From Desulfosudis oleivorans (GTDB lineage: Bacteria > Desulfobacterota > Desulfobacteria > Desulfobacterales > SURF-7), in NCBI GenBank assembly GCA_020723325.1, contig DYJD01000003.1:293822-357821 (forward strand): a stretch of 64,000 nt of DNA. The letters run 5' to 3'. Of the stretch, positions 35,043-50,497 are shown piece by piece. Positions within the stretch are counted from its first letter, which is position 1. Each line of letters opens with the position of its first letter. The translations under genes and the position numbers were made by a program. The notes below the pieces were generated by a model, which was not told the DNA's origin, searched no databases, and worked only from the letters and a program-made list of their open reading frames with translations.

Positions 35043-38000
35043 TTACGGATCAATGATTCCATTATAATCCGCATCCGGCCCGGTAATTTTTATCCCGCAG
35101 ATGACCGCGTCACGCTCCACCGGCGTGAAGGTGATATTCAAATTATTGTTGGTCACCAAAACGGCAATGGTTTCATCATAGGCGGCATTGCGCCCGGCTT
35201 CGGCAAAGATATCTAAATTCGTTATGACCCGGGAGCCCTGGAAGCTTACATTGAAAATTTGTTGGTTTGCACCGGTATAATAAATTTCGGCCATATGGAG
35301 CTCCACATTGTAAGCACGGTTGGGCAGTGAAATATTATAAGCAAATGGCGCATTGCCGTATCTTTGAGTCTGATACAACGCATCATCCTGTGTGCTGCTG
35401 ATGGGGGCCGTTGATTTCCAAGGCTCGCCGCCGCTGAAGGAGCTATCCGCCGTATATACCGTTCCATCGATGGCAGTATAGCCCGGTCCGCCGCAATCGA
35501 TGGCCTTAACCACCACTACCGGTTCCTGCACCCGCACGTCCACGCTGCGGGTTACGGTGCCGCCGTTACCGATAACACTGAGGGTATATCGAGTAGAAGT
35601 CGTTGGGCTGACGGTTCTAGATCCATTCAAAGCCACCGAACCGATACCGGAATCGATACTGGCGCTGTTCCCATTTGTAGAGGTCCATGTGAGGGTCGCC
35701 GACTGACCCGCCCGGATAATTGCCGGACTGACGCTGATGTTGACCGTCGGTAAGGTTTCAGTCACAGTCAGGTTGAAAGCCGGCAGGGAGGCTGATACAT
35801 TGCCGTCACTGACGGAAATGACAATGTTATAAGTAGTACCGATATCCGTTTGCTGGGGCGTACCGCTCAAAGCGCCGGTGGTGGTATTAAAAGCCGCCCA
35901 GGCCGGCCGGTTCACAATGGCAAAAGTCAACGGATCACCGTTGGGGTCCCAAGCCGCGGGAGTAAAACTGTAAGCCGTACTCCGCGCTGTTAATTTTACA
36001 GGAATTCCGGTGATCACCGGCGGCCGGTTGGCAGCAGTGGTCACGGCGAGATTGAAGGCCGGCAGGGAGGCCGAAACCTGGCCGTCGGACACCGTGATCA
36101 CAATACCGTTGATCACGCCCACATTGCCCGCGGCCGGCGTGCCGGTTAAGGCGCCAGTGGAGGTATTGAAACTGGCCCAGGTCGGTCGGTTGACAATGGA
36201 GAAGGTCAAAGGATTGCCGTCCGGATCCGAGGCTGTGGGGGTAAAGCTATAGGCCTTGCCTACCGTTGCTGCGCTGGCCGGGATGCCGCTGATTACCGGC
36301 GGCCGGTTGGCAGCAGCGCTCACGGTTAAATTGAAGGCCGCCAAGGAGGCCGAGGCCTGACCGTCGGACACCGTGATCACAATACCGCTGGTCACGCCCA
36401 CGTTGCCCGCGGCCGGCGTGCCGGTCAAGGCGCCGGTGGAGGTATTGAAACTGGCCCAGGTGGGCCGATTGACAATAGAGAAGGTCAAGGGATTGTTGTC
36501 CGGATCCGAGGCTGTGGGGGTAAAGCTATACGCCGTGCCCACGGTGGCCGAGGTTGCCGGCGTGCCACTGATCACCGGCGGCTGGTTGCCGGCACTCACA
36601 GTTAAATTAAAGGACGGCAGGGAAGCCGAGGCCTGACCGTCCGAGACCGTGATCACAATCCCGCTGGTCACGCCCACATTGCCCGCGGCCGGTGTGCCGG
36701 TCAAGGCGCCGGTGGAGGTATTGAAACTCGCCCAGGTCGGACGGTTGACAATGGAGAAAGTAAGTGGATTGCCGTCCGGATCCGAGGCCGTGGGGGTGAA
36801 GCTATAGGCTGTGCCGACCGTCGCCGTGGTGGCCGGCGTGCCGCTGATCACCGGCGGCCGGTTGGCAGCAGCGGTCACGGTCAGGCTAAAGGCCGGCAGG
36901 GAAGCCGAGGCTTGGCCATCGCTGACGGAAATGACGATATTGGAGGTCGTGCCGGTAGTAGTCGGTGTTCCGGAAAGGTTGCCGGTGGTAGCATTAAAAG
37001 TGGCCCAGGTGGGTCGATTGGTGATGCTGAAGGTCAAGGGATTATTGTCCGGATCACTGGCGCTGGGGGTGAAGGAATAGGCCGCGCCCGCCCGGACGCT
37101 CGTCCCTGGACTGCCGTTGATCACCGGCGGGTTGTTGGGTACAGTGACCGTGACATTATCAAAGACGCCTGTACACAACTGGCCGGTGTTGTTGGATGTC
37201 ACTGCCAGGCCGATATACAATGTGCCGGTCATGGTGATGGTTTGATTGGTGCCGATCTGGGTCCAGGTGCTGCCATTGGCTGACCGATAAGCTGCAAAGG
37301 TGTTGTTGGTTTTGGTAATTCTCACCCAGTAGGGCGCCACATTCCCAGCCTGGCCAGCATTGCGCGTGGTGGTGCCGCCGGCGGTGGTCCTTCTTTGAAA
37401 GGCCGTGCCGTTACCTCGCGAAAGCAGCGTAAAGGCATTGATACTATTGGCATTTAGGTTCTGACGGATCATCACCCCGGCTTTGGCCCAGGCACTGGTA
37501 TTTTCTATGCTGGCGACCCGTGCGGTGATGGACCCGTTGCCGCTGAAAGTCCGATAGATAAAGCGGAACTGATCCGAAGTTCCCCCGATATCAGTACCGG
37601 CGCCTTCTGCAGTAAATGTGCCGTTGTTATAATTCACCGTTCCGGCCAATGCCGGAGCACCGACATCGGCCGTCTGCCAGGGGATGGGCAAAGCCGCAGC
37701 CGTGACACTAACTGTCGCATTGGCGGTGGTGGACCCGCCTGGACCTACTGCTGTTATGGTATAAATGGTGGTAGTGGTTGGGTATACATTCATGGAGCCG
37801 CTTGCGGCAACATTGCCGATGCCTTGGATACTGATGGTATCGGCGTTGGAAGTACTCCAAGTCAAAGTAGAATAAGCACCTGCCGTAATGCTGGTGGGAC
37901 TGGCACTGATGGTGGCCGTGGGTGTGGGATTGGGTGCCACGGTAAGATTGAAAGCCGGCAGGGACCGGGAATTTGTGCCGTCGGAAACGGAGATGACGAT

Positions 38001-39389
38001 TCCACTGGTGGTGCCGATATCGGAATTAGTGGGAATACCGCTCAAATTGCCGTTAGCAGAATTGAAACTGGCCCAAATCGGTCGATTGACGATACTAAAG
38101 GTCAAGGCATCCCCATCGCCGTCGCTGGCGGTGGGTGTGAAATTATAAACCTGGCCAAGGGTGACGCTGGTAGCCGGCGTGCCGCTGATGACCGGAGCCT
38201 GATTAATGTTGACCACGGTCAGGTTGAAGGCCGGCAGGGATCGGCTGTATTGGCCATCACTGACGGAAATGACAATGCCGCTGGTGGTGCCGACATCGGC
38301 ATTGCCGGGAGTACTGGTAAGGGCTCCGGTGGTGGTGTTGAAACTGGCCCAGCTCGGCCGGTTGACAATGGAAAAAGTAAAGGAAGTATTGTCCGGATCA
38401 GTCACCATGGGTGTAAAGGAATAGGCGGAGGCTTCGTTGACGCTGGTGGCCGGCGTCCCGCTGATCACCGGCGGATCATTTACCCGCGTGACCGTCACTG
38501 TAAATGTTTGGTTGGCAGTACCGCCGTTGCCGTCATTGACGGTAAGGGTGACGGCGCCGGAAGTTATTACGCCCTCGGCCGGGGTCCAAGCAATGGCACC
38601 GGTGCCGGCATTGATGGTCATTCCGGCAGGGGCATTGCTGAGGGACCAGGTCAGGGTATTGGCATCCGCATCTGTAGCCGTCGGATTGTAGGTGTATTGA
38701 ACATCTTCCGTGGCACTAGTCGGCGCGCTGGAAGTGATCACCGGCGGGTTGTTGGGAATAGTGACTGTTAGATTGTCAAAAACGCCGGTACATAGTTGTC
38801 CGGTGTTGTTAGATGTCACCGCCAGGCCGATATACAATGTGCCGGTCATGGTGATGGTTTGATTAGTGCCGATTTGTGTCCAAGTGCTGCCGTTGGCCGA
38901 TCGATAGGCCGCAAAGGTGTTGTTGGTTTTGGTAATTCTCACCCAGTAAGGCGCCCTGTTACCTGCCTGGCCGGCATTGCGCGTGGTGGTCCCTCCGGCT
39001 GTAGTCCGCCTTTGAAAGGCCGTCCCGCTGCTGCCTGAGATCAATGAAAACGCATTCACACTATTCGCCGCAAGGCTCTGACGGATCATCACCCCGGCTT
39101 TGGCCCAGGCGCTTGTGTTTTCAATGCTTGAGACCCGAGCGGTAATGGTTCCATTGCCTCTGAAAGTTCTATAGATGAAACGGAATTGATCCGAAGTTCC
39201 GAAAATATCAGCACCACCACCCTCCACGGTAAAAATCCCGGCATTGTGGTTGTCTGTTCCAGAAAGCGCCGGCGCACCGATGTCGGCGCTTTGCCAGGGT
39301 AAAGGCACTGCCCCAAAAGTCTGGGACGCCAGGACTGTCATCCATAAAAGAAGCGCGATGGAAAATAAATTCCGTTTACTGATTTTCAT
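35043..39389 (-). CDS. Large secreted multidomain protein: two LamG/DUF1349-like, eight Ig-like (He_PIG), malectin domain
   Basis: 1448 residues, signal peptide about 1-26 (ALLLWMTVLASQTFGA). Order: concanavalin-like domain A (about 30-210), three Ig/cadherin-like repeats with PPVISGTPATS..SFTP.., an Ig-like domain (495-560), concanavalin-like domain B (566-745), five nearly identical Ig-like repeats (750-1180), another Ig-like domain, then a malectin domain (1296-1443; IDCGGPGYTAIDGTVY, AEIYYTGANQQIFNV). Ends DYNGIIDP. Such proteins bind carbohydrate and are surface or matrix proteins. There is no LPXTG or PEP-CTERM anchor. An 18-bp sequence shared with the PEP-CTERM region lies 181-204 bases upstream, so regulation may be common. 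Confidence 0.85.
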   Translation of the reverse strand: MKISKRNLFSIALLLWMTVLASQTFGAVPLPWQSADIGAPALSGTDNHNAGIFTVEGGGADIFGTSDQFRFIYRTFRGNGTITARVSSIENTSAWAKAGVMIRQSLAANSVNAFSLISGSSGTAFQRRTTAGGTTTRNAGQAGNRAPYWVRITKTNNTFAAYRSANGSTWTQIGTNQTITMTGTLYIGLAVTSNNTGQLCTGVFDNLTVTIPNNPPVITSSAPTSATEDVQYTYNPTATDADANTLTWSLSNAPAGMTINAGTGAIAWTPAEGVITSGAVTLTVNDGNGGTANQTFTVTVTRVNDPPVISGTPATSVNEASAYSFTPMVTDPDNTSFTFSIVNRPSWASFNTTTGALTSTPGNADVGTTSGIVISVSDGQYSRSLPAFNLTVVNINQAPVISGTPATSVTLGQVYNFTPTASDGDGDALTFSIVNRPIWASFNSANGNLSGIPTNSDIGTTSGIVISVSDGTNSRSLPAFNLTVAPNPTPTATISASPTSITAGAYSTLTWSTSNADTISIQGIGNVAASGSMNVYPTTTTIYTITAVGPGGSTTANATVSVTAAALPIPWQTADVGAPALAGTVNYNNGTFTAEGAGTDIGGTSDQFRFIYRTFSGNGSITARVASIENTSAWAKAGVMIRQNLNANSINAFTLLSRGNGTAFQRRTTAGGTTTRNAGQAGNVAPYWVRITKTNNTFAAYRSANGSTWTQIGTNQTITMTGTLYIGLAVTSNNTGQLCTGVFDNVTVTVPNNPPVINGSPGTSVRAGAAYSFTPSASDPDNNPLTFSITNRPTWATFNATTGNLSGTPTTTGTTSNIVISVSDGQASASLPAFSLTVTAAANRPPVISGTPATTATVGTAYSFTPTASDPDGNPLTFSIVNRPTWASFNTSTGALTGTPAAGNVGVTSGIVITVSDGQASASLPSFNLTVSAGNQPPVISGTPATSATVGTAYSFTPTASDPDNNPLTFSIVNRPTWASFNTSTGALTGTPAAGNVGVTSGIVITVSDGQASASLAAFNLTVSAAANRPPVISGIPASAATVGKAYSFTPTASDPDGNPLTFSIVNRPTWASFNTSTGALTGTPAAGNVGVINGIVITVSDGQVSASLPAFNLAVTTAANRPPVITGIPVKLTARSTAYSFTPAAWDPNGDPLTFAIVNRPAWAAFNTTTGALSGTPQQTDIGTTYNIVISVSDGNVSASLPAFNLTVTETLPTVNISVSPAIIRAGQSATLTWTSTNGNSASIDSGIGSVALNGSRTVSPTTSTRYTLSVIGNGGTVTRSVDVRVQEPVVVVKAIDCGGPGYTAIDGTVYTADSSFSGGEPWKSTAPISSTQDDALYQTQRYGNAPFAYNISLPNRAYNVELHMAEIYYTGANQQIFNVSFQGSRVITNLDIFAEAGRNAAYDETIAVLVTNNNLNITFTPVERDAVICGIKITGPDADYNGIIDP
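37140..39310 (-). repeat. Long internal DNA repeats of the secreted protein gene
   Basis: Two about 550-bp copies of the concanavalin-like domain lie at roughly 37140-37700 and 38760-39310, with long identical stretches. In the same gene the five Ig-like repeats of about 280-290 bases lie at about 35750-37130. Such repeats can change in number by recombination. Confidence 0.75.
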
Positions 39390-39563
39390 TTGCCCCCCAT
39401 CTCGATAGCCAGTAAATGCAATTTCTAACTAGCAATTTGTATAAACTTTACTACTGTATCAATTACATTAGCAGTAGAACCATCATTCAATCGAATAAAC
39501 ATCGTTATCATTTTCGGCCAAAGTTACCAGTTCGCTTTCTGTTGATCAATGACCAAAGATTAT

Positions 39564-39592
39564 GGATAAAATATGGATAACGTCTCCATATT
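39564..39592. promoter_or_regulatory. Shared operator-like site 1
   Basis: GGATAAAATATGGATAAC (39564-39581) is identical to 46887-46904. It overlaps an inverted repeat AATATGGA/TCCATATT (39570-39577 and 39585-39592). It lies upstream of the secreted giant protein gene (minus) and of a short plus-strand ORF at 39725. Probably a binding site for a common regulator. Confidence 0.6.
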
Positions 39593-39724
39593 ATCCTAAA
39601 GTTGAGTAATTCCAGAAAACAGCAACATTTATCTGAAAGGGTAGGAGCAGTGAAGGCGCGTGAAAATGCCGGCAAAAAAAGTTATGGAACTACTATAAAT
39701 CATACAAGGCAGGAGGAGGAATCC

Positions 39725-39832
39725 ATGAAACTTTATAGGCCGTCACCCGGAAGTAATAATGCCGGGCGACGGCCGTTATTTCAATTGTATTCTAATTCAA
39801 TTTCCCATGCCCATTTTACCGCAAGGCCCTGA
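39725..39832 (+). other. 35-codon ORF with strong ribosome site, containing a terminator
   Basis: AGGAGGAGGA (39711-39720) is well placed before ATG 39725. After only five codons a GC-rich hairpin begins. The protein (35 residues, Arg/Pro/Ser-rich) is not recognisable. Best explanation: a deletion fused a gene start directly to its terminator. A leader peptide is the alternative. Confidence 0.35.
39738..39774. terminator. GC-rich terminator-like hairpin
   Basis: Arms 39738-39750 (GGCCGTCACCCGG) and 39762-39774 pair over 13 bp with one mismatch, loop of 11. The plus strand continues GTTATTTC, so a terminator for plus-strand transcripts is likely; it also lies 65 bases beyond the esterase stop on the minus strand. 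Confidence 0.6.
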
Positions 39833-39838
39833 TTGCTG

Positions 39839-41258
39839 TTACTGACACTGCCCTGTCATGCCGTTGGCTGGAAAAGGTGAATACACGGCATTGTTGTTGT
39901 CGTTACAATCCAACAAGGCTGTAAAAATCGCATTGTAAATCGGTTTCCCATCAGGACTCAGGCCGGGTCCGGCGACATACCCGTCACCGTCCTTATCACG
40001 ATAGGGATCATTGGCCCAAACGGTCTCCAAATCAACTTGGGCTGCATTGCCGATGATACCAGTGCTATTAATGGCTTTAATGAATTCATTGGCAATCATG
40101 GCATAGCCCGTGTTGGAAGGATGGAAACCGTCCAGGGAGAATAACCCCGCGCTATAACCACGATCGATGGTATCACCGTCAATGGCAATTTGGCCGTTCA
40201 AGATCTGGTCGAACATGGATACGACATCTACCAAATGCAAATTGCTGTGTTGACTTACCAGCTCGTTGATATGGGAACTGATGGCCGCTGCCCGATTGGA
40301 TATGAGGGCGACTTCCTCGGCGGTGAGATAATACCCGTCGACCGACATGAGCTGCTGAATAGCTCCGTTCAAATAAGTGTTGTTCATGGTTAAGACGGCT
40401 GGAGCCTGCGTGGGTGCCAAGCCTTGCAACACCGGGCCGAAACCCAAATAGTGGCCGGAGCCTAGGGCAGTGACAGTGGGCTCATCGAAAATGGCCAAAC
40501 GTTGAATGTCTTCTGCATTGAACAACCCGGCAATCCCCGTTACCGAGGGGATATTGGCGATGAAGATGTGACTGTTGGGAATTTTGGTCAGACGTTCGAC
40601 AATCGTGTTCAGATTAGATTTGATTGAATTCAAATCATGCCCCTTAGTCGTATCCTCCAGAAAGGCATTGATGGCATCGGCAGTCAATTGGGTTCCATTG
40701 CCGGCGATCACAGTTCCCATAATGTCATTGCCGCCGATTAACAGCGTGATGATTTTCAGATCATCGGCTGAATAAAGGCCGGCCACATATTCGGCGGCTT
40801 CCAGTTGCGTAATGGCTTTGCCGCTATTCGTGGGGATGGGTTGCAACAACTCCGCCATGTAGGACGACTCACCCGTTGTTTGCTGTAAGAGGCTTTGAAT
40901 AGTGGCGCCGTCCACCGCGACATTATAAGGGATGATGGTGGCGTCCAGACGCTTTTTCGACATATCTAGAAGTGGATTGTTCCATTGTAAACTGGCAACT
41001 TTTCGAATTTGGTCGGCTAATAATTGGGGATAACTGTTGACCTGGGTGTATTGGTTCACGTTGCCGCTGCCGCTTTGAACGCCATTGCCGTAACTATCCC
41101 CCCAGGTTGATCATAACGATTTTTCTTGGCGTCGGCGACTCAGAACTTCTATCACTACTGCACGCTGAACACATCATCACGAAAACGAGCATGAACATAA
41201 TGCTTGGCAAGCATATCCGGCTGGAAATTTTTTCGTAACCCGTATGTGTCAATAACAT
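39839..41258 (-). CDS. GDSL/SGNH esterase, split by +1 in a G6 tract
   Basis: Catalytic block III (IGGNDIMGT) and block V (DGFHPSNTGYAMIANEF) are in one frame from about 41100 down to 39839. The block I Ser motif GDSYGNG is encoded just upstream in the same frame at 41098, but the signal peptide and start lie in another frame: ATG 41258 gives a lipoprotein-like leader (MFMLVFVMMCSACSSD) running to RKIVMINLG. The frames meet at a run of six G (41098-41103); with five G the reading becomes INLGDSYGNG, the normal GDSL block. So the gene is frameshifted by one base, by sequencing error, slippage (phase variation) or mutation. GAGAGGAAA precedes ATG 41258. Role: esterase/lipase at the envelope. 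Confidence 0.75.
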
Positions 41259-41271
41259 TTTAATTTCCTCT

Positions 41272-41550
41272 CTATCGGTTTTTCAGTATCTCTTCAATCT
41301 CCTTAATGCTCTTGTTCAAGTACTTTATCTCTCTGACCAGGATTTCCAGTTCCATGTGTTCCAATTCAGAAACCGGCGCCTCAAGAACCTCATTCAGATC
41401 CTCGTCGCTGGATAGGCTTTCCTTTTTTGCCAATATCCCGCGAGCGGCCAAAAGAATTTTGATCTTGTTCTCCACTATCGCTTTATAACTCTCAAATTTG
41501 TCCCTGGTCAGTACCGGATGTACCGACTGCGCACAGGATTTCTCTTTCAT
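41272..41550 (-). CDS. Small helical protein of unknown function
   Basis: 92 residues from ATG 41550 with GGAGG 5 bases upstream; reading from 41583 would add 11 residues. Almost wholly helical and charged, with a likely coiled coil at the C-terminus (VREIKYLNKSIKEIEEILKNR). No signal or membrane segment, and I know no family. It ends 13 bases before the esterase leader ATG, so the two are probably one transcript. Possibly an intracellular partner; pure guess. Confidence 0.6.
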   Translation of the reverse strand: MKEKSCAQSVHPVLTRDKFESYKAIVENKIKILLAARGILAKKESLSSDEDLNEVLEAPVSELEHMELEILVREIKYLNKSIKEIEEILKNR

Positions 41551-41741
41551 CCGAGCCTCCGATAACCTCCTGCATGTTATCATTCTGTCAACAACCTCGC
41601 TTCATGCGCATATTTTTTTCTAACTGTTAATTTCGGACCATGCAGCGCTCCTTGCACTGCACTTTCTCCTAGGTTTGCAAATGACCGGTTTTCATCCCCT
41701 TGGCAACCATAGGCTTACCTTTGGGTACGACCCGGCTTAAA

Positions 41742-41777
41742 ATCCAGGCCCGACCCCATAACGGGGCGGGCCTGGAT
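41742..41777 (-). terminator. Terminator after the SdrD-repeat gene
   Basis: Inverted repeat ATCCAGGCCCG (41742-41752) with 41767-41777, inner CCCC/GGGG pair and a bulged A. On the minus strand the hairpin is followed by TTTTAAG. It lies 18 bases after the stop of the 41795 gene. Confidence 0.8.
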
Positions 41778-41794
41778 GGGTGAACATGGATGGC

Positions 41795-44700
41795 TTACGG
41801 TGTACAATCAAAGCCGGCGGTGCTGCCGGCCATGCCCTTGAGCACCCACTGGTTGATGTATCCGGTTTTCCCTTTGCTATCCCCTTCCAATTTCCCGCAA
41901 TCCTCAGGACCGTTCATGTCCTCGTCCGAGCAGGACAGATGGAAAAGGGATTCACCGATTTTAGTGCTGGTGCCGGCTTTGTAAATTTCCCAGATAACGT
42001 CATTGGGGGCTCCGGCGTAGCCGCTCACGGTCACTTCCTCACCGATGTCAATATTATCGATGTCAGCCAAGAGCGTACTGCCCACCGCGCCTTTATAGGC
42101 CTTGATACGGATGGATTGTGTACCGGCCCACATCATTGCCAGTTCATCGATGGGTTTGACAGATTTGCAATCCCAACCTGTTGAACCAGGATTGTATTTC
42201 ACGGAACAACCCTCAAGGAAGTTGATCATGATGGAATACTGGTTGGCGCCGGTTTTGGACTTTTTCTCAAACTTAAATTTGAGCTTAGCCTTTTTTCCGG
42301 CTTCGATCTGACGTTTGTCGATACCCGCTTTCCAGGCCGTAATGACAGCCGAAGGCGGTGTCGGACCAGCAGCCGGCTCGAAGATCGTATCCTTTTCAAT
42401 TGATATTTTCTTCAGCTTGCCATGTTGCGTCGGCCAGCCCAAGGTCAAGGTCTCGATGGTAATCGGGTCTTTACCGCTGTTGTAGATTTCCCATTCGATC
42501 TCGTCCGAACCCTTTTTGTCTACTTTGATTGTCGATTTTCCAGTAGCAACACATTCAGGCTGGGCAAAGCTGACCGTAACGGTGGAAGAATCAATGGCGC
42601 TGCAGGTGCCGCCATAAACAGTCTGGCCGCTGACCGTCACAAAATTCGTGGTGGTCTTGTCAATCATAGCCTTAGCGGTAAGCATGGCCTCCTTGCCCGG
42701 GGCCAAAGATGCAATGGGGCTGCCCGGGATCGGACCCAACAGGTTGTCATTGACCGTGATGTTTTGCACTGTCATCGGCCCTACATTTTTGACCACATAG
42801 GTGTATTCCACTTCAGTACCGTAGCCGAGATGGCTGCCGTCCACCAAATCCATGGAAACGATCTGAACACTTCCGAAACGATCTCCCACGGCTATTGGTT
42901 GTGAACAGGAGGTATGGATTGCAAGAGATTGAAGGACAACGCCGTTCTGAACAATGTCAAAATATGTATTGGCTTCGAGTTTATCGCCGGCTGATATGGT
43001 GAAGTGGTCGCCGATGTTGATGGATTGCGTACTCGGGGAGACCTTTACGATGTCCGCGTCCTTTTTGATCACGATTCCGATCGGTTCATTCAAGGCCGCA
43101 TCTCCACCGCAGGTCACCTTGCCGTTCTGCCAGTTGGTGGTTTTGCTGCAGTTGCCGCCCACGTATTTCAAGACCACGGATTTCAACTTGCCGTCGCCGC
43201 AATCCAGTCGGGAAGGTACGGTTATCTCACAGTTCTGGGTGCCTGGATTGGGATTGATGGCGTAGCAATTGAAGCTGCCATTGCTGTCGGTCATCCCGCC
43301 AAGCAACCATTTGTTGATATAACCGGTTTTCCCTTTGCCGTCTCCTTCCACTTTGCCGCAGTCCTCGGCACCATCCATGTCGTCATCCGAGCAGGACAGG
43401 TGGAAGGTGGACTCACCGATTTTGATGGTGGTGCCGGCTTTGAAAAGCTCCCAAATCACATCATTGGGGGAGCCGGCGTACCCATTGACGGTCACAGCCT
43501 GGCCGGGAACAATACCATCGATTTCCGCCAGCAGGGTGGACCCCGCCAAGCCCTTCCAGGCCTTAATTTTGACCGGCTCGATGCCGTTCCAAATCAGGGT
43601 GATGGAATCAATGGGCTTGGCGCATGTAAAATTGCCGGCAGGAGTTGTGGGCACCCAGCAGGATTTTGCGACGCTGAGATTACACGGCTCAAGGATAAGT
43701 CCGGCATCCCAGGTACGATCATTTTCACCGGATTGCAGGGTCGTGCAAATGGTTATGCCGGTCCCTGCTTCCGCATCACTGTCCAGGCCGTCATTTGCCC
43801 CCTCATCCATGGGGCTGAATACATAGCCGGCCGGTGCGATGAATGTAACGAAGTAGTTGCCCGGAATCAGGTGGTCAAACAGATAATTACCTGCGGCGTC
43901 CGTGGTGGTCTGGGCAACCAGGGCAGCGTTGCAGTCAAAGAGCTTGACCACGACGCCGGCAATGCCGGGCTCGCCTGCATCTTGGATGCCGTCAAAATTC
44001 AAATCCGCCCACACCAAGTCACCCAAGGAAGCTGGTTTGAAAAAGCCTGCGTCCCAGGTCCGGTCGCTCTCTTCAAAAGCCAAGGTTGTGCAGGCGGTCA
44101 TACCGGTGTTCAAGTCCGCATCGCTGTCCTGCCCGTCGTTTGTCCCTGTATGCTGCGGGCTGGCAAGATAGCCGGCCGGTTTGCCGAAGACAACATAGTA
44201 GTTGCCGGCCAGCAGGTCTTCAAAAAGGTAGAAGCCGTTTTGGTCGGTTACAGTTTCCGCCACAAGATTGCCAAGGCAATCGTATAAGGAAACGGTGACG
44301 TTCTCAATGCCCTGTTCACCGGCATCCTGGATGCCGTCCCCATTCAGATCTTCCCACACAAAATCGCCGATTTCAGCGGTTGCGATGATGACCAGTCCGG
44401 CATCCCAGGTCAGGTCCATTGTGCCGGACAATAGGGATATTTGATCCGTATATCCGGAAGGAGACACGTCGCTGTCCACATCATCCATCCCCATGTCTTT
44501 GAAGCTGAACTCATAACCATTGGGTTTGACAAATTCAACGACATAACAACCCGGCTTGAGGTTATCAAACAGGTAGTATCCGCCGGCGTTGGTCAGTTTG
44601 GTGTCCACGGGTGTTGTCACATCCCCGCAGGCATAGAGTCTCACGGTCACGCCTTGGATGCCTGCTTCGCCAGCATCCTGGATGCCGTTCTTGTTGCCAT

Positions 44701-45982
44701 CCAACCACACAAAATCGCCTATAGCTGCCGGCTGATAAACACCGGCATCCCAGGTCAGGTCATTCTCACCGGGAGTAAGTTCGGTGCAGGCTGTTTTTCC
44801 GGTTACGGGGTCCGCATCACTGTCCTTTCCCATATCCCCCCCCTGTCCTATAGGACTGAAAAGGGAACCGGAAGGCAGGACAAATTCCACATAGTACTGT
44901 CCCGGAGTCAGATTGCTGAAGAGATAGAGGCCGTTTAAGTCCGTGGTTGTTGCGCCGACAAAATTGTTGCTACAGTCATGGAGATTGACCGTGACGCCGG
45001 GCATGCCGAGTTCGCCTGCATCCTGGATGCCGTTGGCGTTTAAATCTTTCCACACAAAATCGCCCAGCGCGGCCGGCTCGTAGATGCCTGCATCCCAGGT
45101 CAAATCCGTCTCACCCGAGCTGAGGGTGGTGCAGATAGTGCGACCGGTTGTCGGATCTGCATCACTATCCGTGGCCTCAACACCGCCTTGGTCCATAGGG
45201 CTGAATACAGCGCCCAACGGCAGCACAAATTTGATAAAATAGTCGCCGGGCGCCAGGTTTTCAAAATGGTAGAAGCCGCTTCCATCCGTTATGGTGCTTG
45301 CCTTGGGCGTTACGACATCGGCACAAGTGTACAGTTCCACGGTAACGCCGCCGAAACCGGGTTCGCCCTGGTCTTGAACACCATCCCCGTTCAGGTCACT
45401 CCATACAAAATCGCCTATGGCCGCGGGTTTTGTTATAGCAAATACATTGCCCTTGGCGCCGCCTGAAAAATCCACCGTAAAATCACCGCTAAAAGTGGAG
45501 TTTTCACTCACCGTGACGACTCCGATATCATAGCCGCTATAGAGTGAGGCCAGTGCGCCGCCGGCCAAACTGATTCGGAAATCAAATTTATCCGTGGAAG
45601 TTGAGGAATTGTAAAAACCGAATTCCTTGACTTCGCCGGACAGCAACACCCCGGTTATCAAACCGGAGCCCGGATCCACAGTGCCTTCCAGGGTAAAATA
45701 ACCGCCGTCCACCAGGGCCCCGGTATCATTCACCCCTATGTTGATTTGCAAAGAGCCACCGGGTTGAAACAGGATCGGTGCCCCGCCTTGCACCAGTGTA
45801 ATGGCAATGGGCGTGGCCTGGATTGCCAGCCTGTCGTTGGCGGCATCATATTGGGTTGTGCCGTTGCTGTCATATGCGATCATTGGAAATTTTGGACTGT
45901 TGTTGAGCAACGCCGCGGATGATATGCCGGCCAAACAAAGCATGACCATCAGCACTGTGATAAGTGAAAATATTTTTTTCAT
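41795..45982 (-). CDS. Large secreted SdrD-B-repeat protein, with N-terminal domain shared with neighbouring PEP-CTERM protein
   Basis: 1395 residues from ATG 45982 (AAGGA 8 bases upstream), signal peptide MKKIFSLITVLMVMLCLAGISSA. N-terminal domain (about 25-195) resembles the PEP-CTERM protein 46100-46750 (NNSPK, DRLAIQATP.., GGYFTLEG, GDFTVDFSG). Then five SdrD-type B repeats with the calcium-binding DxNxDGxQDxGE (IGDFVWxDLNGDGIQDAGE). The next part has two copies of an unknown domain ending SCSDDDMDGAEDCGK.EGDGKGKTGYIN.W, separated by a DUF11-like/CARDB-like segment, one copy at the very C-terminus. No anchor signal. Probably a surface or matrix protein; it is likely co-transcribed with the PEP-CTERM gene 118 bases upstream. 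Confidence 0.85.
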   Translation of the reverse strand: MKKIFSLITVLMVMLCLAGISSAALLNNSPKFPMIAYDSNGTTQYDAANDRLAIQATPIAITLVQGGAPILFQPGGSLQINIGVNDTGALVDGGYFTLEGTVDPGSGLITGVLLSGEVKEFGFYNSSTSTDKFDFRISLAGGALASLYSGYDIGVVTVSENSTFSGDFTVDFSGGAKGNVFAITKPAAIGDFVWSDLNGDGVQDQGEPGFGGVTVELYTCADVVTPKASTITDGSGFYHFENLAPGDYFIKFVLPLGAVFSPMDQGGVEATDSDADPTTGRTICTTLSSGETDLTWDAGIYEPAALGDFVWKDLNANGIQDAGELGMPGVTVNLHDCSNNFVGATTTDLNGLYLFSNLTPGQYYVEFVLPSGSLFSPIGQGGDMGKDSDADPVTGKTACTELTPGENDLTWDAGVYQPAAIGDFVWLDGNKNGIQDAGEAGIQGVTVRLYACGDVTTPVDTKLTNAGGYYLFDNLKPGCYVVEFVKPNGYEFSFKDMGMDDVDSDVSPSGYTDQISLLSGTMDLTWDAGLVIIATAEIGDFVWEDLNGDGIQDAGEQGIENVTVSLYDCLGNLVAETVTDQNGFYLFEDLLAGNYYVVFGKPAGYLASPQHTGTNDGQDSDADLNTGMTACTTLAFEESDRTWDAGFFKPASLGDLVWADLNFDGIQDAGEPGIAGVVVKLFDCNAALVAQTTTDAAGNYLFDHLIPGNYFVTFIAPAGYVFSPMDEGANDGLDSDAEAGTGITICTTLQSGENDRTWDAGLILEPCNLSVAKSCWVPTTPAGNFTCAKPIDSITLIWNGIEPVKIKAWKGLAGSTLLAEIDGIVPGQAVTVNGYAGSPNDVIWELFKAGTTIKIGESTFHLSCSDDDMDGAEDCGKVEGDGKGKTGYINKWLLGGMTDSNGSFNCYAINPNPGTQNCEITVPSRLDCGDGKLKSVVLKYVGGNCSKTTNWQNGKVTCGGDAALNEPIGIVIKKDADIVKVSPSTQSINIGDHFTISAGDKLEANTYFDIVQNGVVLQSLAIHTSCSQPIAVGDRFGSVQIVSMDLVDGSHLGYGTEVEYTYVVKNVGPMTVQNITVNDNLLGPIPGSPIASLAPGKEAMLTAKAMIDKTTTNFVTVSGQTVYGGTCSAIDSSTVTVSFAQPECVATGKSTIKVDKKGSDEIEWEIYNSGKDPITIETLTLGWPTQHGKLKKISIEKDTIFEPAAGPTPPSAVITAWKAGIDKRQIEAGKKAKLKFKFEKKSKTGANQYSIMINFLEGCSVKYNPGSTGWDCKSVKPIDELAMMWAGTQSIRIKAYKGAVGSTLLADIDNIDIGEEVTVSGYAGAPNDVIWEIYKAGTSTKIGESLFHLSCSDEDMNGPEDCGKLEGDSKGKTGYINQWVLKGMAGSTAGFDCTP

Positions 45983-46046
45983 TAGAGGCATCCTTAGATT
46001 TAAGACGATATTATGGGCCTTGGTCTTTGTTTCGGCCTTTCTCATG

Positions 46047-46080
46047 TGTGGGAGCGGCTTCTATCCGCAATTCGGCCGAA
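46047..46080 (+). repeat. REP-like dispersed repeat, copy 1
   Basis: TGTGGGAGCGGCTTCTATCC and following GCAATTCGGCCGAA match copies at 52062-52098 (inverted) and 62959-63010. The copies have a GCGGCT/AGCCGC hairpin in the better preserved members. It sits between the PEP-CTERM gene and the SdrD-repeat gene. Confidence 0.7.
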
Positions 46081-46099
46081 TGAAAGATGATCAAGCCCG

Positions 46100-46750
46100 C
46101 TATTTCTTCATTTTCCGACGCAAGCCGGTTAACCCGATTAAACCGATGCCGAGAAGAGTCATGGTGGCAGGTTCCGGCACGGGTGCGGCTTTTACATCGG
46201 CAACGCCGTATTGCCCCTGCCAATCCATGGAAAAGTTGCCTTGGAAAGGAGAAGCATCAGGATCAAAATATAATTCGCTTAGAATCAAGCCGCCGGTGGC
46301 GCCATTGCCGCCATATAAATTTGCAGCATCACCGCCGGTTATTGTAAAAAGGAATTCAAAAGGATCATCAGCCGTATTAAATCCGAAGGCCGAGAGATTT
46401 CCGGTCAGCAAAGCCCCACTCGTATGGAAGCTTGACGTTGTGCCGCCGATGGCCAGGGTTCCACCCGAAAGAGCCCCTGAATCGTTTATAGTTGCGCTCA
46501 GGCTGAAAATTCCGCCGGTGATGAGTTCTGTTATTGCAGAACCATAGGTCAGTGTTAAAGCATAGCCGCTTGCTGAAAATGTGTCGGCGACGGAATTATA
46601 GGTAACCCCTATATTATTTAAAAAAATATCCGGGATCGGATCAAGTGTGAGATTGAGTGATGTGGCGCCGGCAGGTGCCGCCCCCAGGGTGGTCAGCACA
46701 AGTGCTGTAAGCATGATTACAAGCTTCAATATTGTTGTTCGTTTTTTCAT
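46100..46750 (-). CDS. PEP-CTERM sorting-signal protein
   Basis: 216 residues. Signal peptide MKKRTTILKLVIMLTALVLTTLGAAPAGA, a beta-rich middle with two long Gly/Ser-rich strands, and the C-terminal sorting signal VPEPATMTLLGIGLIGLTGLRRKMKK (PEP, hydrophobic helix, basic tail). An exosortase would cut at PEP and move the protein outward; none lies in the window. The middle is similar to the N-terminus of the SdrD-repeat protein next to it. Exosortase systems are usually tied to exopolysaccharide, in line with the 6.6-30.7 kb locus. Site 2 lies 137-166 bases upstream. Confidence 0.92.
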   Translation of the reverse strand: MKKRTTILKLVIMLTALVLTTLGAAPAGATSLNLTLDPIPDIFLNNIGVTYNSVADTFSASGYALTLTYGSAITELITGGIFSLSATINDSGALSGGTLAIGGTTSSFHTSGALLTGNLSAFGFNTADDPFEFLFTITGGDAANLYGGNGATGGLILSELYFDPDASPFQGNFSMDWQGQYGVADVKAAPVPEPATMTLLGIGLIGLTGLRRKMKK

Positions 46751-46886
46751 TTTCTTGCCCCCTTGATAGATTTGAGATTAATTTAAACCGGGCATACAAA
46801 TAAAAGCCCTCATGTGTGAACATTGTTATCGATAGTGATCAGCAAGTTAACATTTGCGCTCGACTATAACAATAATGGAAAATTTA

Positions 46887-46916
46887 GGATAAAATATGGA
46901 TAACCAATCCATATTT
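46887..46916. promoter_or_regulatory. Shared operator-like site 2
   Basis: GGATAAAATATGGATAAC at 46887-46904 (identical to site 1) with a perfect 10-bp inverted repeat AAATATGGAT (46892-46901) / ATCCATATTT (46907-46916). It lies between the PEP-CTERM gene (minus) and the PAS-LuxR regulator gene (plus), about 140 and 129 bases from their starts. Confidence 0.65.
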
Positions 46917-47026
46917 CTTGTTTTCTGGATGGATAACAGGCATCTTTGATTGGATTTTTTTCTTAATCGTTGACTCTTTAATGATTTTTATAGTAATTTT
47001 AACTTGATCCATAAATTTTATTATTC

Positions 47027-47044
47027 AATTGGTTGTAACCAATT
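47027..47044 (+). promoter_or_regulatory. 18-bp perfect palindrome abutting the PAS-LuxR start codon
   Basis: AATTGGTTGTAACCAATT (47027-47044) ends one base before ATG 47045 and replaces the ribosome site; no Shine-Dalgarno is visible. It may be an operator for autorepression or an mRNA hairpin that limits translation. Alternatively the true start lies downstream. Confidence 0.55.
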
Positions 47045-49960
47045 ATGGAAATTACAAAACACGAATCCAACCGAAACCAAATTCTTGATCAGGGGTACGG
47101 GCCTATCATCAACGAGCTGTACAATCATATCCGTGAAATGATTTTTCTGCATGATTTGGATGGATTTTTTATCCTTACAAATCATTGTTTTGTGGAAACC
47201 GTCGGATATTCATCTCAAGAGCTTGTCGATAAAAAGATAAGCGATTTGATGCTGGGAGAAGGTGAATTTGAATTGGAGGCGTATCTCAAGCAACTGAGCT
47301 CTGTTGGATATAACCGAGGCGTGGCCCGACTCGTGACAAAGTCAGGGACTGTCATGGTTGTAGAATATAAAAGCGTTGTTTTTGAGAGACGGCAAAATTC
47401 GAAGTGTGTCAGTGTTATTTGCCGGGATATTTCCGAACAAATCAAAATTCAGCAGGCTTTTGCGGAAAACGAAGCAGAGCTCAAGGAGAGCGAACAAAGA
47501 TTCCGCGATATTTTCGAAAACATCAATGAAGGTATTTATCTTCATGACTTAGAAGGAAATTTTATCGAAGTAAATACCTATTTCATCCAAAATATGGGCT
47601 ACTCCAAAAGCGAGTTGCTGGCCAAAAATGTCCGGGATTTGATACCTGAACAATATAAACCTGAGTTTGATAATTATTTAAGACGTATAAAAACAGATGG
47701 GTATGAAAAGGGGCTGTTTAAAATTGAGACCAAGTATGGCACCCTCCATACCGTTGAGTATACCAATTCCCTTGTCCAAGGACCGGACGGCCCGATGGCG
47801 GTAAGGGGCGTGGCCCGGGATGTCACCGAGCAACTGGCGCTGCAAAAAGCCCTGAAGAACAGCCAGAAAGAGCTGACGGAAAATGAACAGAAATACCGCG
47901 ATCTATTTGAAAATATCAACGCCTATATTTTTATCCATGATTTGGACGGCAATTACATTGAAACCAATGCCCATTTTTTTAAAAATATGGGCTACTCCAA
48001 AAGCGAAATGCTGACCAAAAATATCCGTGATCTGGTACCACCGGAACATGAAGCCGGTTATAGGGAATATCTCAAACGAATCAGGGCCAATGGCACTGAT
48101 GAGGGGGTGCTGACGGTGGTTTCCAAGGACGGCAGCCTCCGGGTGGCGGAATACACTAATTCCCTGATCTATGGACAAGACGGGCCTATTGCCATCAGAG
48201 GTTTGGCCCGGGACATCACCGAAGAGATCAAGGCCCGCAAGGCCTTAAAGCAAAGTGAGAACAAACTGAAGGAGAGCGAAAAAAAATATCGTGATATTTT
48301 TGAAAATATCAACGCAATCATTTATATCCATGAGTTGGACGGCAGATGCATCGAGGCCAATACTCATTTCATCAAGATGATGGGGTATTCCATCCAGGAA
48401 ATTCAAACCAAGACCATAGGGGACTTGATTCCGGAAGATCACAAGCCTGGTTATGAGGAATATCTCAAACGCATACGAACCAATGGGCATGATGAGGGCA
48501 TATTAACGTTAGTAACCAAAAATTGTGAAAAACGGATCGTTGAATATACCAATTCCCTGATTCATGGGAAAAACGGCCCGGTGGCCATCCGGGGTTTGGC
48601 CCGGGACATCACGGAAGAATTCAAGGCCCGAAAAGCCTTAAAGCAAAGTGAAAACAAGCTGAGGGAAAACGAAAAAAAATACCGTGATATTTTTGAAAAT
48701 ATCAACGCCTATATTTATATCCATGATCTGGACGGCAAATGCATCGAGGCCAATACCCATTTCATCAAGATGATAGGGTATTCCATCCAAGAACTTCAAG
48801 CTAAAACCATAGGGGACTTGACCCAGGAAAAACATAGGCCCAATTACGAAGAGTATCTCAAACGTATAAAAGCCAATGGGCATGATGAAGGCGCATTTAC
48901 TTTAGTAACCAAAAACGGCGAGAAACGGATCGTCGAATTTATCAGTTCCCTGATCCAGGGGGAAGACGGCCCAGTGGCCATCCGGGGCTTGGCCCGGGAT
49001 ATCACCGAAGAGTTCAAGGCCCGGAAGGCCTTAAAGGCAAGCGAAAACAAGCTGAAGGAAAACGAAAAAAAATTCCGCGATATTTTTGAAAATATCAATG
49101 AGTATATTTATCTCACGGATTTGGAGGGCAAGCTGCTCGACATGAACCCCCATTTTATTAAAAACATGGGATATTCCAAGAGCGAACTCCAAACCAAAAG
49201 TATCAAGGATTTGATGCCGGAAGAATATCGGTCTGAATTCGATAATTATCTTAAACGCATTAAAGCCCACGGCTTTGACAAGGGCTTGTTGAATGTCATC
49301 ACCAAGGGCGGCAGCACAAGAGTTGTGCATTATACGAATTCCCTGGTTCAGGGTGAAAACGGCCCCATCGCCATCAGAGGGGTGGCCCGGGATATCACCG
49401 AAGAGTTCAAGGCGCGGAATGCCCTTCAAAAAAGCGAAGAAGAACTTCGCATCGCCCGGGACAATCTGGAGCGGCGGGTGCAAGAAAGAACCAAAGAATT
49501 ACAAAGATCTAACCAACAGTTGGAAGAAAAAACCAAAAGTCTTGAAGAGGCCAATATTGCCTTGCGCGTTTTGTTGAACAAAAAAAATGAGGCTCAGCAA
49601 GAAACAGAGGAAAAGATAGTGTCCGGTATCAAAGATTTGATACTGCCGGTTTTGCGAAAGGTGAAATTGGGTGAATTAACTCCTTCTCAAAAGGGTTATA
49701 TCGATCTGATTGAATCCAATCTGACCCAGGCCTTTACGCCTTTCGCAGTTGATATCAATTCAAAATTCTATAAGCTGACACCGGCTGAAATTCAGGTTGC
49801 CAATCTGATCAGGGAAGGAAAAGCGACCAAAGAAATTGCGCGACTCTTAAGCCTTGCCGCAAGCACCATTCATACCCATCGAGACAACATCCGCATTAAA
49901 TTGGGAATTAAAAATCGAAAAGTGAATCTTAGAACCCATCTCATTGCCATTCAAAAATAG
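47045..49960 (+). CDS. Six-PAS-domain LuxR-type transcriptional regulator
   Basis: 971 residues, no membrane segment. PAS1 at about 30-140, then five very similar PAS+PAC units (about 148-270, 279-400, 410-530, 541-660, 672-800) with RDIFENIN.YIYIHDL.G..IE.N and PVAIRGLARDITEE. A coiled coil at about 810-860 and a conserved segment before a LuxR/GerE helix-turn-helix at 905-965 (LTPAEIQVANLIREGKATKEIARLL). No histidine kinase or receiver domain. PAS domains may sense small ligands or redox state; repeated nearly identical PAS imply additive or polymeric sensing. It probably regulates itself and neighbouring surface-protein genes through sites 1 and 2 (inferred). Confidence 0.85.
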   Translation: MEITKHESNRNQILDQGYGPIINELYNHIREMIFLHDLDGFFILTNHCFVETVGYSSQELVDKKISDLMLGEGEFELEAYLKQLSSVGYNRGVARLVTKSGTVMVVEYKSVVFERRQNSKCVSVICRDISEQIKIQQAFAENEAELKESEQRFRDIFENINEGIYLHDLEGNFIEVNTYFIQNMGYSKSELLAKNVRDLIPEQYKPEFDNYLRRIKTDGYEKGLFKIETKYGTLHTVEYTNSLVQGPDGPMAVRGVARDVTEQLALQKALKNSQKELTENEQKYRDLFENINAYIFIHDLDGNYIETNAHFFKNMGYSKSEMLTKNIRDLVPPEHEAGYREYLKRIRANGTDEGVLTVVSKDGSLRVAEYTNSLIYGQDGPIAIRGLARDITEEIKARKALKQSENKLKESEKKYRDIFENINAIIYIHELDGRCIEANTHFIKMMGYSIQEIQTKTIGDLIPEDHKPGYEEYLKRIRTNGHDEGILTLVTKNCEKRIVEYTNSLIHGKNGPVAIRGLARDITEEFKARKALKQSENKLRENEKKYRDIFENINAYIYIHDLDGKCIEANTHFIKMIGYSIQELQAKTIGDLTQEKHRPNYEEYLKRIKANGHDEGAFTLVTKNGEKRIVEFISSLIQGEDGPVAIRGLARDITEEFKARKALKASENKLKENEKKFRDIFENINEYIYLTDLEGKLLDMNPHFIKNMGYSKSELQTKSIKDLMPEEYRSEFDNYLKRIKAHGFDKGLLNVITKGGSTRVVHYTNSLVQGENGPIAIRGVARDITEEFKARNALQKSEEELRIARDNLERRVQERTKELQRSNQQLEEKTKSLEEANIALRVLLNKKNEAQQETEEKIVSGIKDLILPVLRKVKLGELTPSQKGYIDLIESNLTQAFTPFAVDINSKFYKLTPAEIQVANLIREGKATKEIARLLSLAASTIHTHRDNIRIKLGIKNRKVNLRTHLIAIQK
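47486..49450 (+). repeat. Five 393-bp tandem repeats inside the PAS-LuxR gene
   Basis: The DNA for PAS2 to PAS6 repeats with a period of about 131 codons and shared 15-20-base blocks (for example the ATTTTTGAAAATATCAA region). Copies 4 and 5 (near 48270-49040) are most alike, which implies recent expansion. Confidence 0.7.
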
Positions 49961-50497
49961 CCCAGCCTTTTTAGAGGGGCTATCGGGACCGGAGGGAAGG
50001 TTGCGTTTTCGGTCGACCGCGGCCTTCTCTCCAGGGTTCCCCTTGAACATTAAATATGGAGACGACTCAACGCAATTGTTGTTTTTTCATGACGAGCCTA
50101 CTCATAACAAAAAGGCCAAACAACTTATTGTTACGTTCATCCGGTATCCTGCAAGCGATTAAACGGATGCGGTTGCCCACCATTCCTTATCCAGATTGCC
50201 CGACTCCGTTTCACTGGACACTTTGATGCTTGCTAAGAAAGATCAGCAGGAGGCCCATATTGTCCCCCCCGAAGTCTTAACTCCCAGGTCGCAATCCGGA
50301 CTCTCCTGCTGAGGATTTATTCGACATTGAATGGCAGCGTTTCGTGTGCCTCTATTTTTCCCTTGTAGATTTGTTCACGGACCTCGTTGCCAAGCTGGGG
50401 CTTGGCGCTTCAACAAGAGAATTGATATTGAAAAATATTTCGTATCAATGCTATTTCAGGTGTGAACCGATTCAAGATACAAAAAATGAGGGAATAC
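49961..50497. other. Intergenic region, no gene recognised
   Basis: About 537 bases. A weak inverted repeat ATAGCCC/GGGCTAT (49957-49983) may end the PAS-LuxR transcript. A 9-bp inverted pair CAGCAGGAG/CTCCTGCTG lies around 50240-50310. An open stretch at 50344-50544 has no recognisable protein. Confidence 0.45.

What the first reader, a model, noticed from the sequence alone, without database searches (positions are those of the whole stretch)
39564..46916. Same 18-bp sequence and palindrome at two surface-protein promoters
GGATAAAATATGGATAAC occurs at 39564 and 46887, each time overlapping an AATATGGA/TCCATATT inverted repeat, 7.3 kb apart, next to the giant secreted protein gene and between the PEP-CTERM and PAS-LuxR genes. 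Chance identity in a 64-kb window is very unlikely. It suggests a small regulon of surface proteins, perhaps run by the six-PAS regulator.
Basis: partly seen in the sequence, partly recalled or inferred. Interest (0 to 1): 0.7.

Follow-up and report, generated by a model that had tools for sequence, protein, structure and literature searches.

The report
Sensor-regulator's switch sites before surface-protein genes
The repeated DNA word is very probably the docking site of the neighbouring sensor-regulator, which seems to switch on secreted surface proteins; many relatives of this regulator in other bacteria carry a matching site at the end of their own gene, so regulator and site can be read together.

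Summary
In detail: GGATAAAATATGGATAAC is exact at 39564 and 46887. Both copies are part of a larger promoter module reading leftwards into the giant secreted protein gene and the PEP-CTERM gene: palindrome AATATGGA-N7-TCCATATT, a third half-site 11 bp further, and TTG starting 43 bases after the palindrome start. At 0-1 mismatches the right arm, third half-site and TTG occur three times in the 7.2-Mb genome: these two and one before a secreted esterase-like protein. Homologues of the six-PAS LuxR protein (P0001) found by protein alone (79 loci) often carry such a palindrome at their own stop codon (at most 1 mismatch of 9 pairs: 20 of 78 luxR stops, 0 of 502 control stops), with the same third half-site and TTG. 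The base after GG is A with recognition helix STx[DH]T and G with STx[DH]F: 35 of 35 scored rows agree, one odd row left out, only three independent switches. Many luxR genes lack a recognisable site. P0001 is the likely activator; binding and activation are inferred, not shown. My paper searches listed no account of these operators; I read passages of four papers only.

The parts
39570..39592 (-). Site 1: operator palindrome AATATGGAGACGTTATCCATATT (gene orientation)
39559..39567 (-). Site 1: third half-site ATCCATAAT, direct repeat of the right arm at 11 bp
39544..39549 (-). Site 1: putative -35, TTGATC
   Evidence: weak, not listed by the consensus scan
39521..39526 (-). Site 1: putative -10, TAACTT, 17 bp after the -35
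   Evidence: weak, not listed
35043..39389 (-). Target 1: giant secreted protein (1448 aa; He_PIG, DUF1349, malectin)
   Evidence: palindrome ends 180 bp before the ATG
46893..46915 (-). Site 2: operator palindrome AATATGGATTGGTTATCCATATT (gene orientation)
46882..46890 (-). Site 2: third half-site ATCCTAAAT, 11 bp from the right arm
46867..46872 (-). Site 2: putative -35, TTGTTA
   Evidence: sequence; weak, not listed
46844..46849 (-). Site 2: putative -10, TAACTT, 17 bp after the -35
   Evidence: read from the sequence; weak, not listed
46100..46750 (-). Target 2: PEP-CTERM protein (216 aa)
   Evidence: palindrome ends 142 bp before the ATG
41795..46045 (-). SdrD_B-repeat protein (1416 aa), 54 bp behind the PEP-CTERM gene on the same strand, possibly the same operon
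   Evidence: operon inferred
39839..41059 (-). GDSL-type lipase/acylhydrolase-like protein, same strand, between the two modules; operon membership not tested
47045..49960 (+). P0001: six-PAS LuxR-type regulator (971 aa), proposed activator; helix STIHTHR

Best explanation
The two sites are operators of P0001, the six-PAS LuxR-type protein encoded beside site 2. Its HTH domains bind the palindrome and probably the third half-site 11 bp further. This places the protein just upstream of a weak -35 element and switches on the leftward promoters of the PEP-CTERM gene (perhaps with the genes behind it) and of the giant secreted protein; a third target, a secreted esterase-like gene, lies on another contig. 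Shown from sequence: the module, its spacing and orientation, its association with this regulator family in other genomes, and the agreement of helix residue and operator base. Inferred: binding, activation rather than repression, use of the promoter, and the signal, which is unknown.
For: Module at 0, 0 and 1 mismatch only before three secreted-protein genes. Palindromes at the stop codon of luxR homologues found by protein alone: 20 of 78 luxR stops against 0 of 502 control stops at no more than 1 mismatch of 9 pairs. AATATGG-type sites near the 3' end in 20 of 33 loci with an S-T-x-x-[FT] helix, 2 of 46 with other helices, 3 of 854 background windows. Helix T with base A and F with base G in 35 of 35 scored rows. 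Third half-site agrees with the right arm at the variable base in 37 of 39 modules; T at position 43 in 39 of 39, TTG at 43 in 30 and at 42 in 6, against 0.021 per position further downstream in the same strings. P0001 is the only one of 7 full-length family members in the genome with this helix.
Against: No experiment. The -35/-10 hexamers at the window sites are weak and were not listed by the consensus scans. 13 of 33 S-T-x-x-[FT] loci show no AATATGG-type site 3' of the gene (one of them, L178, has one on its 5' side), and L036 (STIDFHR) shows none nearby. Of 10 loci with T at that position but another first residue only L216 has the site. L218 (T helix) has the A type in its right arm only. 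Helix and base change together only 3 times on the tree; the sign test gives p 0.25 and cannot reach 0.05. P0001 has no such module at its own 3' end; the window arrangement (divergent, plus a distant site) differs from most relatives. Exact site C47 could not be tied to a gene. The module search also gave 14 places at 3 mismatches against 2 in the control, so weaker targets are not excluded.
Confidence: 0.78

Rival explanations
1. The sites are real operators, but of another regulator (another family member or an unrelated factor).
For: The genome has 6 other full-length family members and 4 weaker HTH matches; one (C78) also has T at the switching position, KTVETHR.
Against: None of the other six has an AATATGG site at its own 3' end, and their helices differ; loci with R or K as first helix residue lack AATATGG-type sites.
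Confidence: 0.12
2. P0001 binds the sites but represses these genes, or also regulates its own gene from site 2.
For: Site 2 lies in the divergent region before P0001.
Against: The array ends just upstream of -35 and does not cover -35 to +1, which suits activation; read towards P0001, no TTG stands at position 43 (sequence).
Confidence: 0.08
3. The PEP-CTERM gene is controlled by the sigma-54/PrsK-PrsR system known for proteobacterial PEP-CTERM genes, and the palindrome is secondary.
For: That is the described mode for many proteobacterial PEP-CTERM genes (PMC1569441, abstract and passages). The genome has exosortases (3 over the cut-off) and many sigma-54 activator-like proteins.
Against: No -24/-12 motif in the regions before either window gene. 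No protein passes the PrsR cut-off, though the best comes near (489.4 against 502.6 bits).
Confidence: 0.04
4. The palindromes are terminator hairpins, RNA elements or dispersed repeats without a protein.
For: A palindrome at a gene's 3' end is where a terminator would be expected; C47 and C21 lie downstream of genes.
Against: No terminator-like site in either window region, no Rfam match. A third half-site and TTG at fixed spacing and the agreement with the protein helix are not explained.
Confidence: 0.03

Closest known systems
VqmA of Vibrio cholerae and of vibriophage VP882 (PMC8284805, passages seen; its PAS plus LuxR-type HTH build is recalled)
   Same: Acts through palindromes with GG and CC ends; phage VqmA is reported to need GG-N9-CC, the same GG-to-CC distance as here.
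   Different: V. cholerae VqmA uses GG-N6-CC. No operator at the regulator's own stop codon and no third half-site was seen in the passages read.
Streptomyces PAS-LuxR regulators (PimM and relatives; PMC9774167, passages seen)
   Same: PAS domain plus LuxR-type HTH; a palindrome with GG and CC arms in the promoter region.
   Different: Site CTVGGGAWWTCCCBAG, arms close together, at the -35 region; here GG-N9-CC lies upstream of -35 with a third half-site.
PrsK/PrsR sigma-54 PEP-CTERM regulon (PMC1569441, abstract and passages seen)
   Same: A shared DNA element upstream of PEP-CTERM genes; the paper says further regulators and motifs remain to be found.
   Different: Sigma-54 promoter and an NtrC-like activator there; no -24/-12 motif here.

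Membership tests
PAS-LuxR transcriptional regulators (P0001) | PAS domain(s) followed by a C-terminal LuxR/GerE HTH | tested here: met
   six PAS stretches and GerE 911-959 over the Pfam cut-offs
PAS-LuxR transcriptional regulators (P0001) | Binds a palindrome at target promoters | not testable with these tools
   only sequence association
Streptomyces PimM-type operator | CTVGGGAWWTCCCBAG at the -35 region | tested here: not met
   window palindromes are AATATGGA-N7-TCCATATT, 20 bp upstream of the putative -35; consensus from PMC9774167
Phage VqmA-type operator | GG-N9-CC palindrome | tested here: met
   AATATGG-N9-CCATATT at both sites; definition from PMC8284805 passages. Orthology of P0001 to VqmA was not tested.
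Sigma-54/PrsR PEP-CTERM promoter | -24(GG)/-12(GC) element upstream of the gene | tested here: not met
   no match in 39390-39760 or 46751-47044, gene orientation
Sigma-54/PrsR PEP-CTERM promoter | PrsR encoded in the genome | tested here: inconclusive
   116 matches, none over the TIGR02915 cut-off; best 489.4 against 502.6 bits
Intrinsic terminator | G+C-rich stem followed by a run of T | tested here: not met
   0 found in 39350-39850 and in 46700-47100

The most novel reading that the evidence does not exclude
A large family of PAS-LuxR regulators, mostly in Desulfobacterota, carries its operator and promoter at its own 3' end, often with the operator overlapping the stop codon, so that each regulator is labelled with its cognate site. 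The operator changes with the recognition helix: STx[DH]T with AATATGGA, STx[DH]F with AATATGGG, NT[IV][LM]F with AATAGTGG, GT[IV]DF with AATATAGG. This would be a readable protein-DNA code for orphan LuxR proteins and would predict their targets (secreted proteins, glycogen-binding-type proteins, a NiFe hydrogenase, branched-chain-type transport with an AMP-binding enzyme).
Probability: 0.6. Interest if true: 0.75.

Novelty: new variant of a known kind. Interest (0 to 1): 0.62.

Why it matters
Operators of most PAS-LuxR regulators are, to my knowledge (not searched for), unknown. If the site stands next to the regulator gene, then regulator, site and target can be read from sequence alone, and the rule can be tested by exchanging one helix residue. 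For this genome it names a likely switch for a set of secreted and PEP-CTERM proteins. Haft et al. (PMC1569441, passage seen) wrote that further regulators and motifs for PEP-CTERM genes were still to be found.

Tried and rejected
Recent duplication of one promoter region: the two regions are not alike beyond the module. Terminator or RNA element. Sigma-54/PrsR. My first expectation, that relatives carry the site upstream of luxR as in the window, held for few; in most it is 3' of the gene. C47, an exact palindrome, could not be tied to a gene and is not counted as a target. C21 fits only in its + direction (T at 43, before an acyltransferase gene) and is called possible; it is among the 39 modules, not among the 38. 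The other 18-mer matches (3 mismatches) were looked at in sequence only, save C80. The 14 exact sites that are not beside luxR: site 1 and C47 of this genome, and 12 in other genomes; a profile search of the fetched 5-8 kb round those 12 found no family luxR (an earlier regex had been too strict and missed three true ones). Regex scripts failed (nothing printed; one false match) and were replaced; searches missed loci through strict regexes, so one search took luxR stops from the tblastn coordinates. For four loci (L164, L166, L217, L234) the operator was taken at 32-160 bases after the stop. Rows set aside: L218 (odd left arm), L222 (helix misread by the regex), L162 and L199 (neither T nor F) from the 35 of 35; L180 (contig end). 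The tree kept the helix columns. The 38-39 modules were chosen because a palindrome had been seen, so their column counts describe modules, not all luxR genes; many are related, so the Fisher value overstates independence. A reading of L167's downstream gene as a methyltransferase was wrong: Pfam gives Hydantoinase_B.

Full report
OBSERVATION. The 18-mer is exact at 39564 and 46887. In the own genome (G000, 7.22 Mb) the palindrome AATATGGA-N7-TCCATATT has 3 exact and 2 one-mismatch copies; at up to 1 mismatch the reversed control has 0. Both window copies point the same way towards a leftward secreted-protein gene; the palindromes end 180 and 142 bp before the ATG.

THIRD TARGET. The one-mismatch site on contig C80 lies before a gene for a 668-aa protein with a signal-peptide-like start (L066:5483-7489, minus), a putative serine esterase by Pfam (DUF676, 26.0 bits, cut-off 20.3). 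It aligns with the window sites beyond the palindrome. A search for right arm, third half-site and TTG at fixed spacing gave the two window sites with 0 mismatches, C80 with 1, and 14 others with 3; reversed control 2 in all.

LINK TO THE REGULATOR FAMILY. In 96 relatives at up to 1 mismatch, sites in G004, G009 and G001 stood directly 3' of homologues of P0001. In 242 genomes of the order there were 26 exact AATATGG-N9-CCATATT sites (reversed control 6); 12, counting window site 2, stand beside a luxR gene of this family, 14 do not. A scan of GTDB genomes with an alignment of 11 luxR C-termini (A1), by protein alone, gave 222 relatives, of which the best 80 were kept (79 loci). Seven of the 79 are loci of the discovery set (L157, L158, L166, L173, L188, L208, L234; judged from contig lengths, positions and sequences).

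STOP-CODON PALINDROME. A 23-bp palindrome starting within -6 to +12 of the luxR stop, with at most 1 mismatch of 9 pairs, is present in 20 of 78 loci scored (15 of 71 without the seven) and in 0 of 502 stops of other ORFs of at least 150 aa in the same loci; with at most 2 mismatches 31 of 78 against 24 of 502. In 13 of the 20 it begins at the second base of the stop codon (12 TAA, 1 TAG). AATATGG-type sites (up to 2 mismatches) within -60 to +400 of the stop: 20 of 33 loci with an S-T-x-x-[FT] helix (13 of 26 without the seven), 2 of 46 with other helices (L215, L216), 3 of 854 background windows. So 13 of 33 lack one there; one of these, L178, has one on its 5' side.

MODULE. Thirty-eight modules (35 luxR loci, the two window sites, C80), aligned on the palindrome, show a third half-site at 25-33, a direct repeat of the right arm at 11 bp, and TTG at 43-45. 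With C21 added: T at 43 in 39 of 39, TTG at 43 in 30 and at 42 in 6; bases 15 and 26 agree in 37 of 39 (TT 12, CC 24, AA 1, TC 1, CT 1); identity of the right arm to the stretch 11 bp on is 0.69, against 0.58 with other loci's. At the window sites TTGATC and TTGTTA are each followed after 17 bp by TAACTT. These hexamers are weak and the consensus scans did not list them, as an activator-dependent promoter might look (inference).

CODE. Helix residue T goes with base A and F with base G in 35 of 35 scored rows (9 T). The tree of 39 C-termini needs 3 changes of each, and 3 of 3 independent pairs agree, too few for the sign test. L218 (T helix) has the A type in its right arm only and was left out. 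T alone does not suffice: of 10 loci with T but another first helix residue only L216 has the site. Other helices have other stop palindromes: NT[IV][LM]F with AATAGTGG or relatives of it (L177, L187, L194, L222, L223, L227), GT[IV]DF with AATATAGG or AGTATAGG (L192, L196, L203). RhlR aligns here as STVNFH, so the switching residue lies in what is, in LuxR-type proteins, the recognition helix; that the equivalent NarL residue touches bases is recalled, and the passages of PMC4549865 that I saw do not say so.

TARGETS ELSEWHERE. Same-strand genes downstream include small secreted proteins with an NDSL motif (L157, L158; L157 has no Pfam match), AMPK1_CBM/CBM_48 proteins (L159, L164, L166, L208), a NiFe hydrogenase small subunit (L216), a branched-chain-type ABC ATPase (L187, L222, L223, L227) followed by an AMP-binding enzyme (L187 and L223 tested), a protein with weak TPR matches below the cut-offs (L188) and a hydantoinase B-like protein (L167). 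In others the next gene is unclear or on the other strand. So the module is not tied to surface proteins; in the window it serves them.

OWN GENOME. Seven full-length family members; only P0001 has STIHTHR. Its nearest row in the tree is L163 (record titled Desulfobacterales bacterium CG23), whose operator starts 5 bases after the start of its stop codon. In the window the arrangement differs: an operator in the divergent region and another 7.3 kb away. From the titles of related records the host is probably of Desulfobacterales or near; G000 itself is unnamed.

LITERATURE. Searches listed no paper that by title or abstract describes these operators or operators at the stop codon of PAS-LuxR genes in this group; some lists were cut (one search showed 12 of 48, one search showed 15 of 56). 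I read passages of PMC1569441, PMC9774167, PMC8284805 and PMC4549865, and listings only of all others. The library lacks most subscription journals.

Noticed in passing
window 50053-50064: 93 bases after the stop of P0001 stands AATATGGAGACG, the same 12 bases as the left arm of site 1 in gene orientation, without a matching right arm; perhaps a decayed operator or chance.
   Followed up: no
L177, L187, L194, L222, L223, L227 (3' ends of luxR): luxR genes with an NT[IV][LM]FHR helix carry AATAGTGG-like palindromes at the stop codon; in L187, L222, L223 and L227 a branched-chain-type ABC ATPase gene follows, in L187 and L223 then an AMP-binding enzyme.
   Followed up: partly
L216 from 4482: A GTIDTHR-type luxR with an exact A-type operator at its stop codon stands before a NiFe hydrogenase small subunit gene.
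   Followed up: partly
L241 (own genome C97) and L242 (own genome C110): Two other luxR genes of this genome have other palindromes nearby: AAATACGGG..., 102 bases after the stop (C97), and TAATGCATA...TATGCATTA before the gene (C110).
   Followed up: no
own genome C47:19473-19495 (L064:7474): Exact palindrome with a similar right flank but no evident target gene, between the 3' ends of a sulfatase-like and a LysR-like gene (names by likeness).
   Followed up: partly
L118:5246-5524: A luxR fragment in which the frame runs on through the operator, so that the palindrome is read as codons at its C-terminus.
   Followed up: no
L213 and L217: G-type modules also occur in records titled Kiloniellaceae and Gammaproteobacteria, outside Desulfobacterota; metagenome binning errors are not excluded.
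   Followed up: no
L140, L145, L139, L208: Behind several G-type modules a CBM_48-type gene is followed by small genes that look like STAS- and PilZ-type proteins (by likeness); the one tested STAS-like protein (L159:1882-2205) had no Pfam match.
   Followed up: partly
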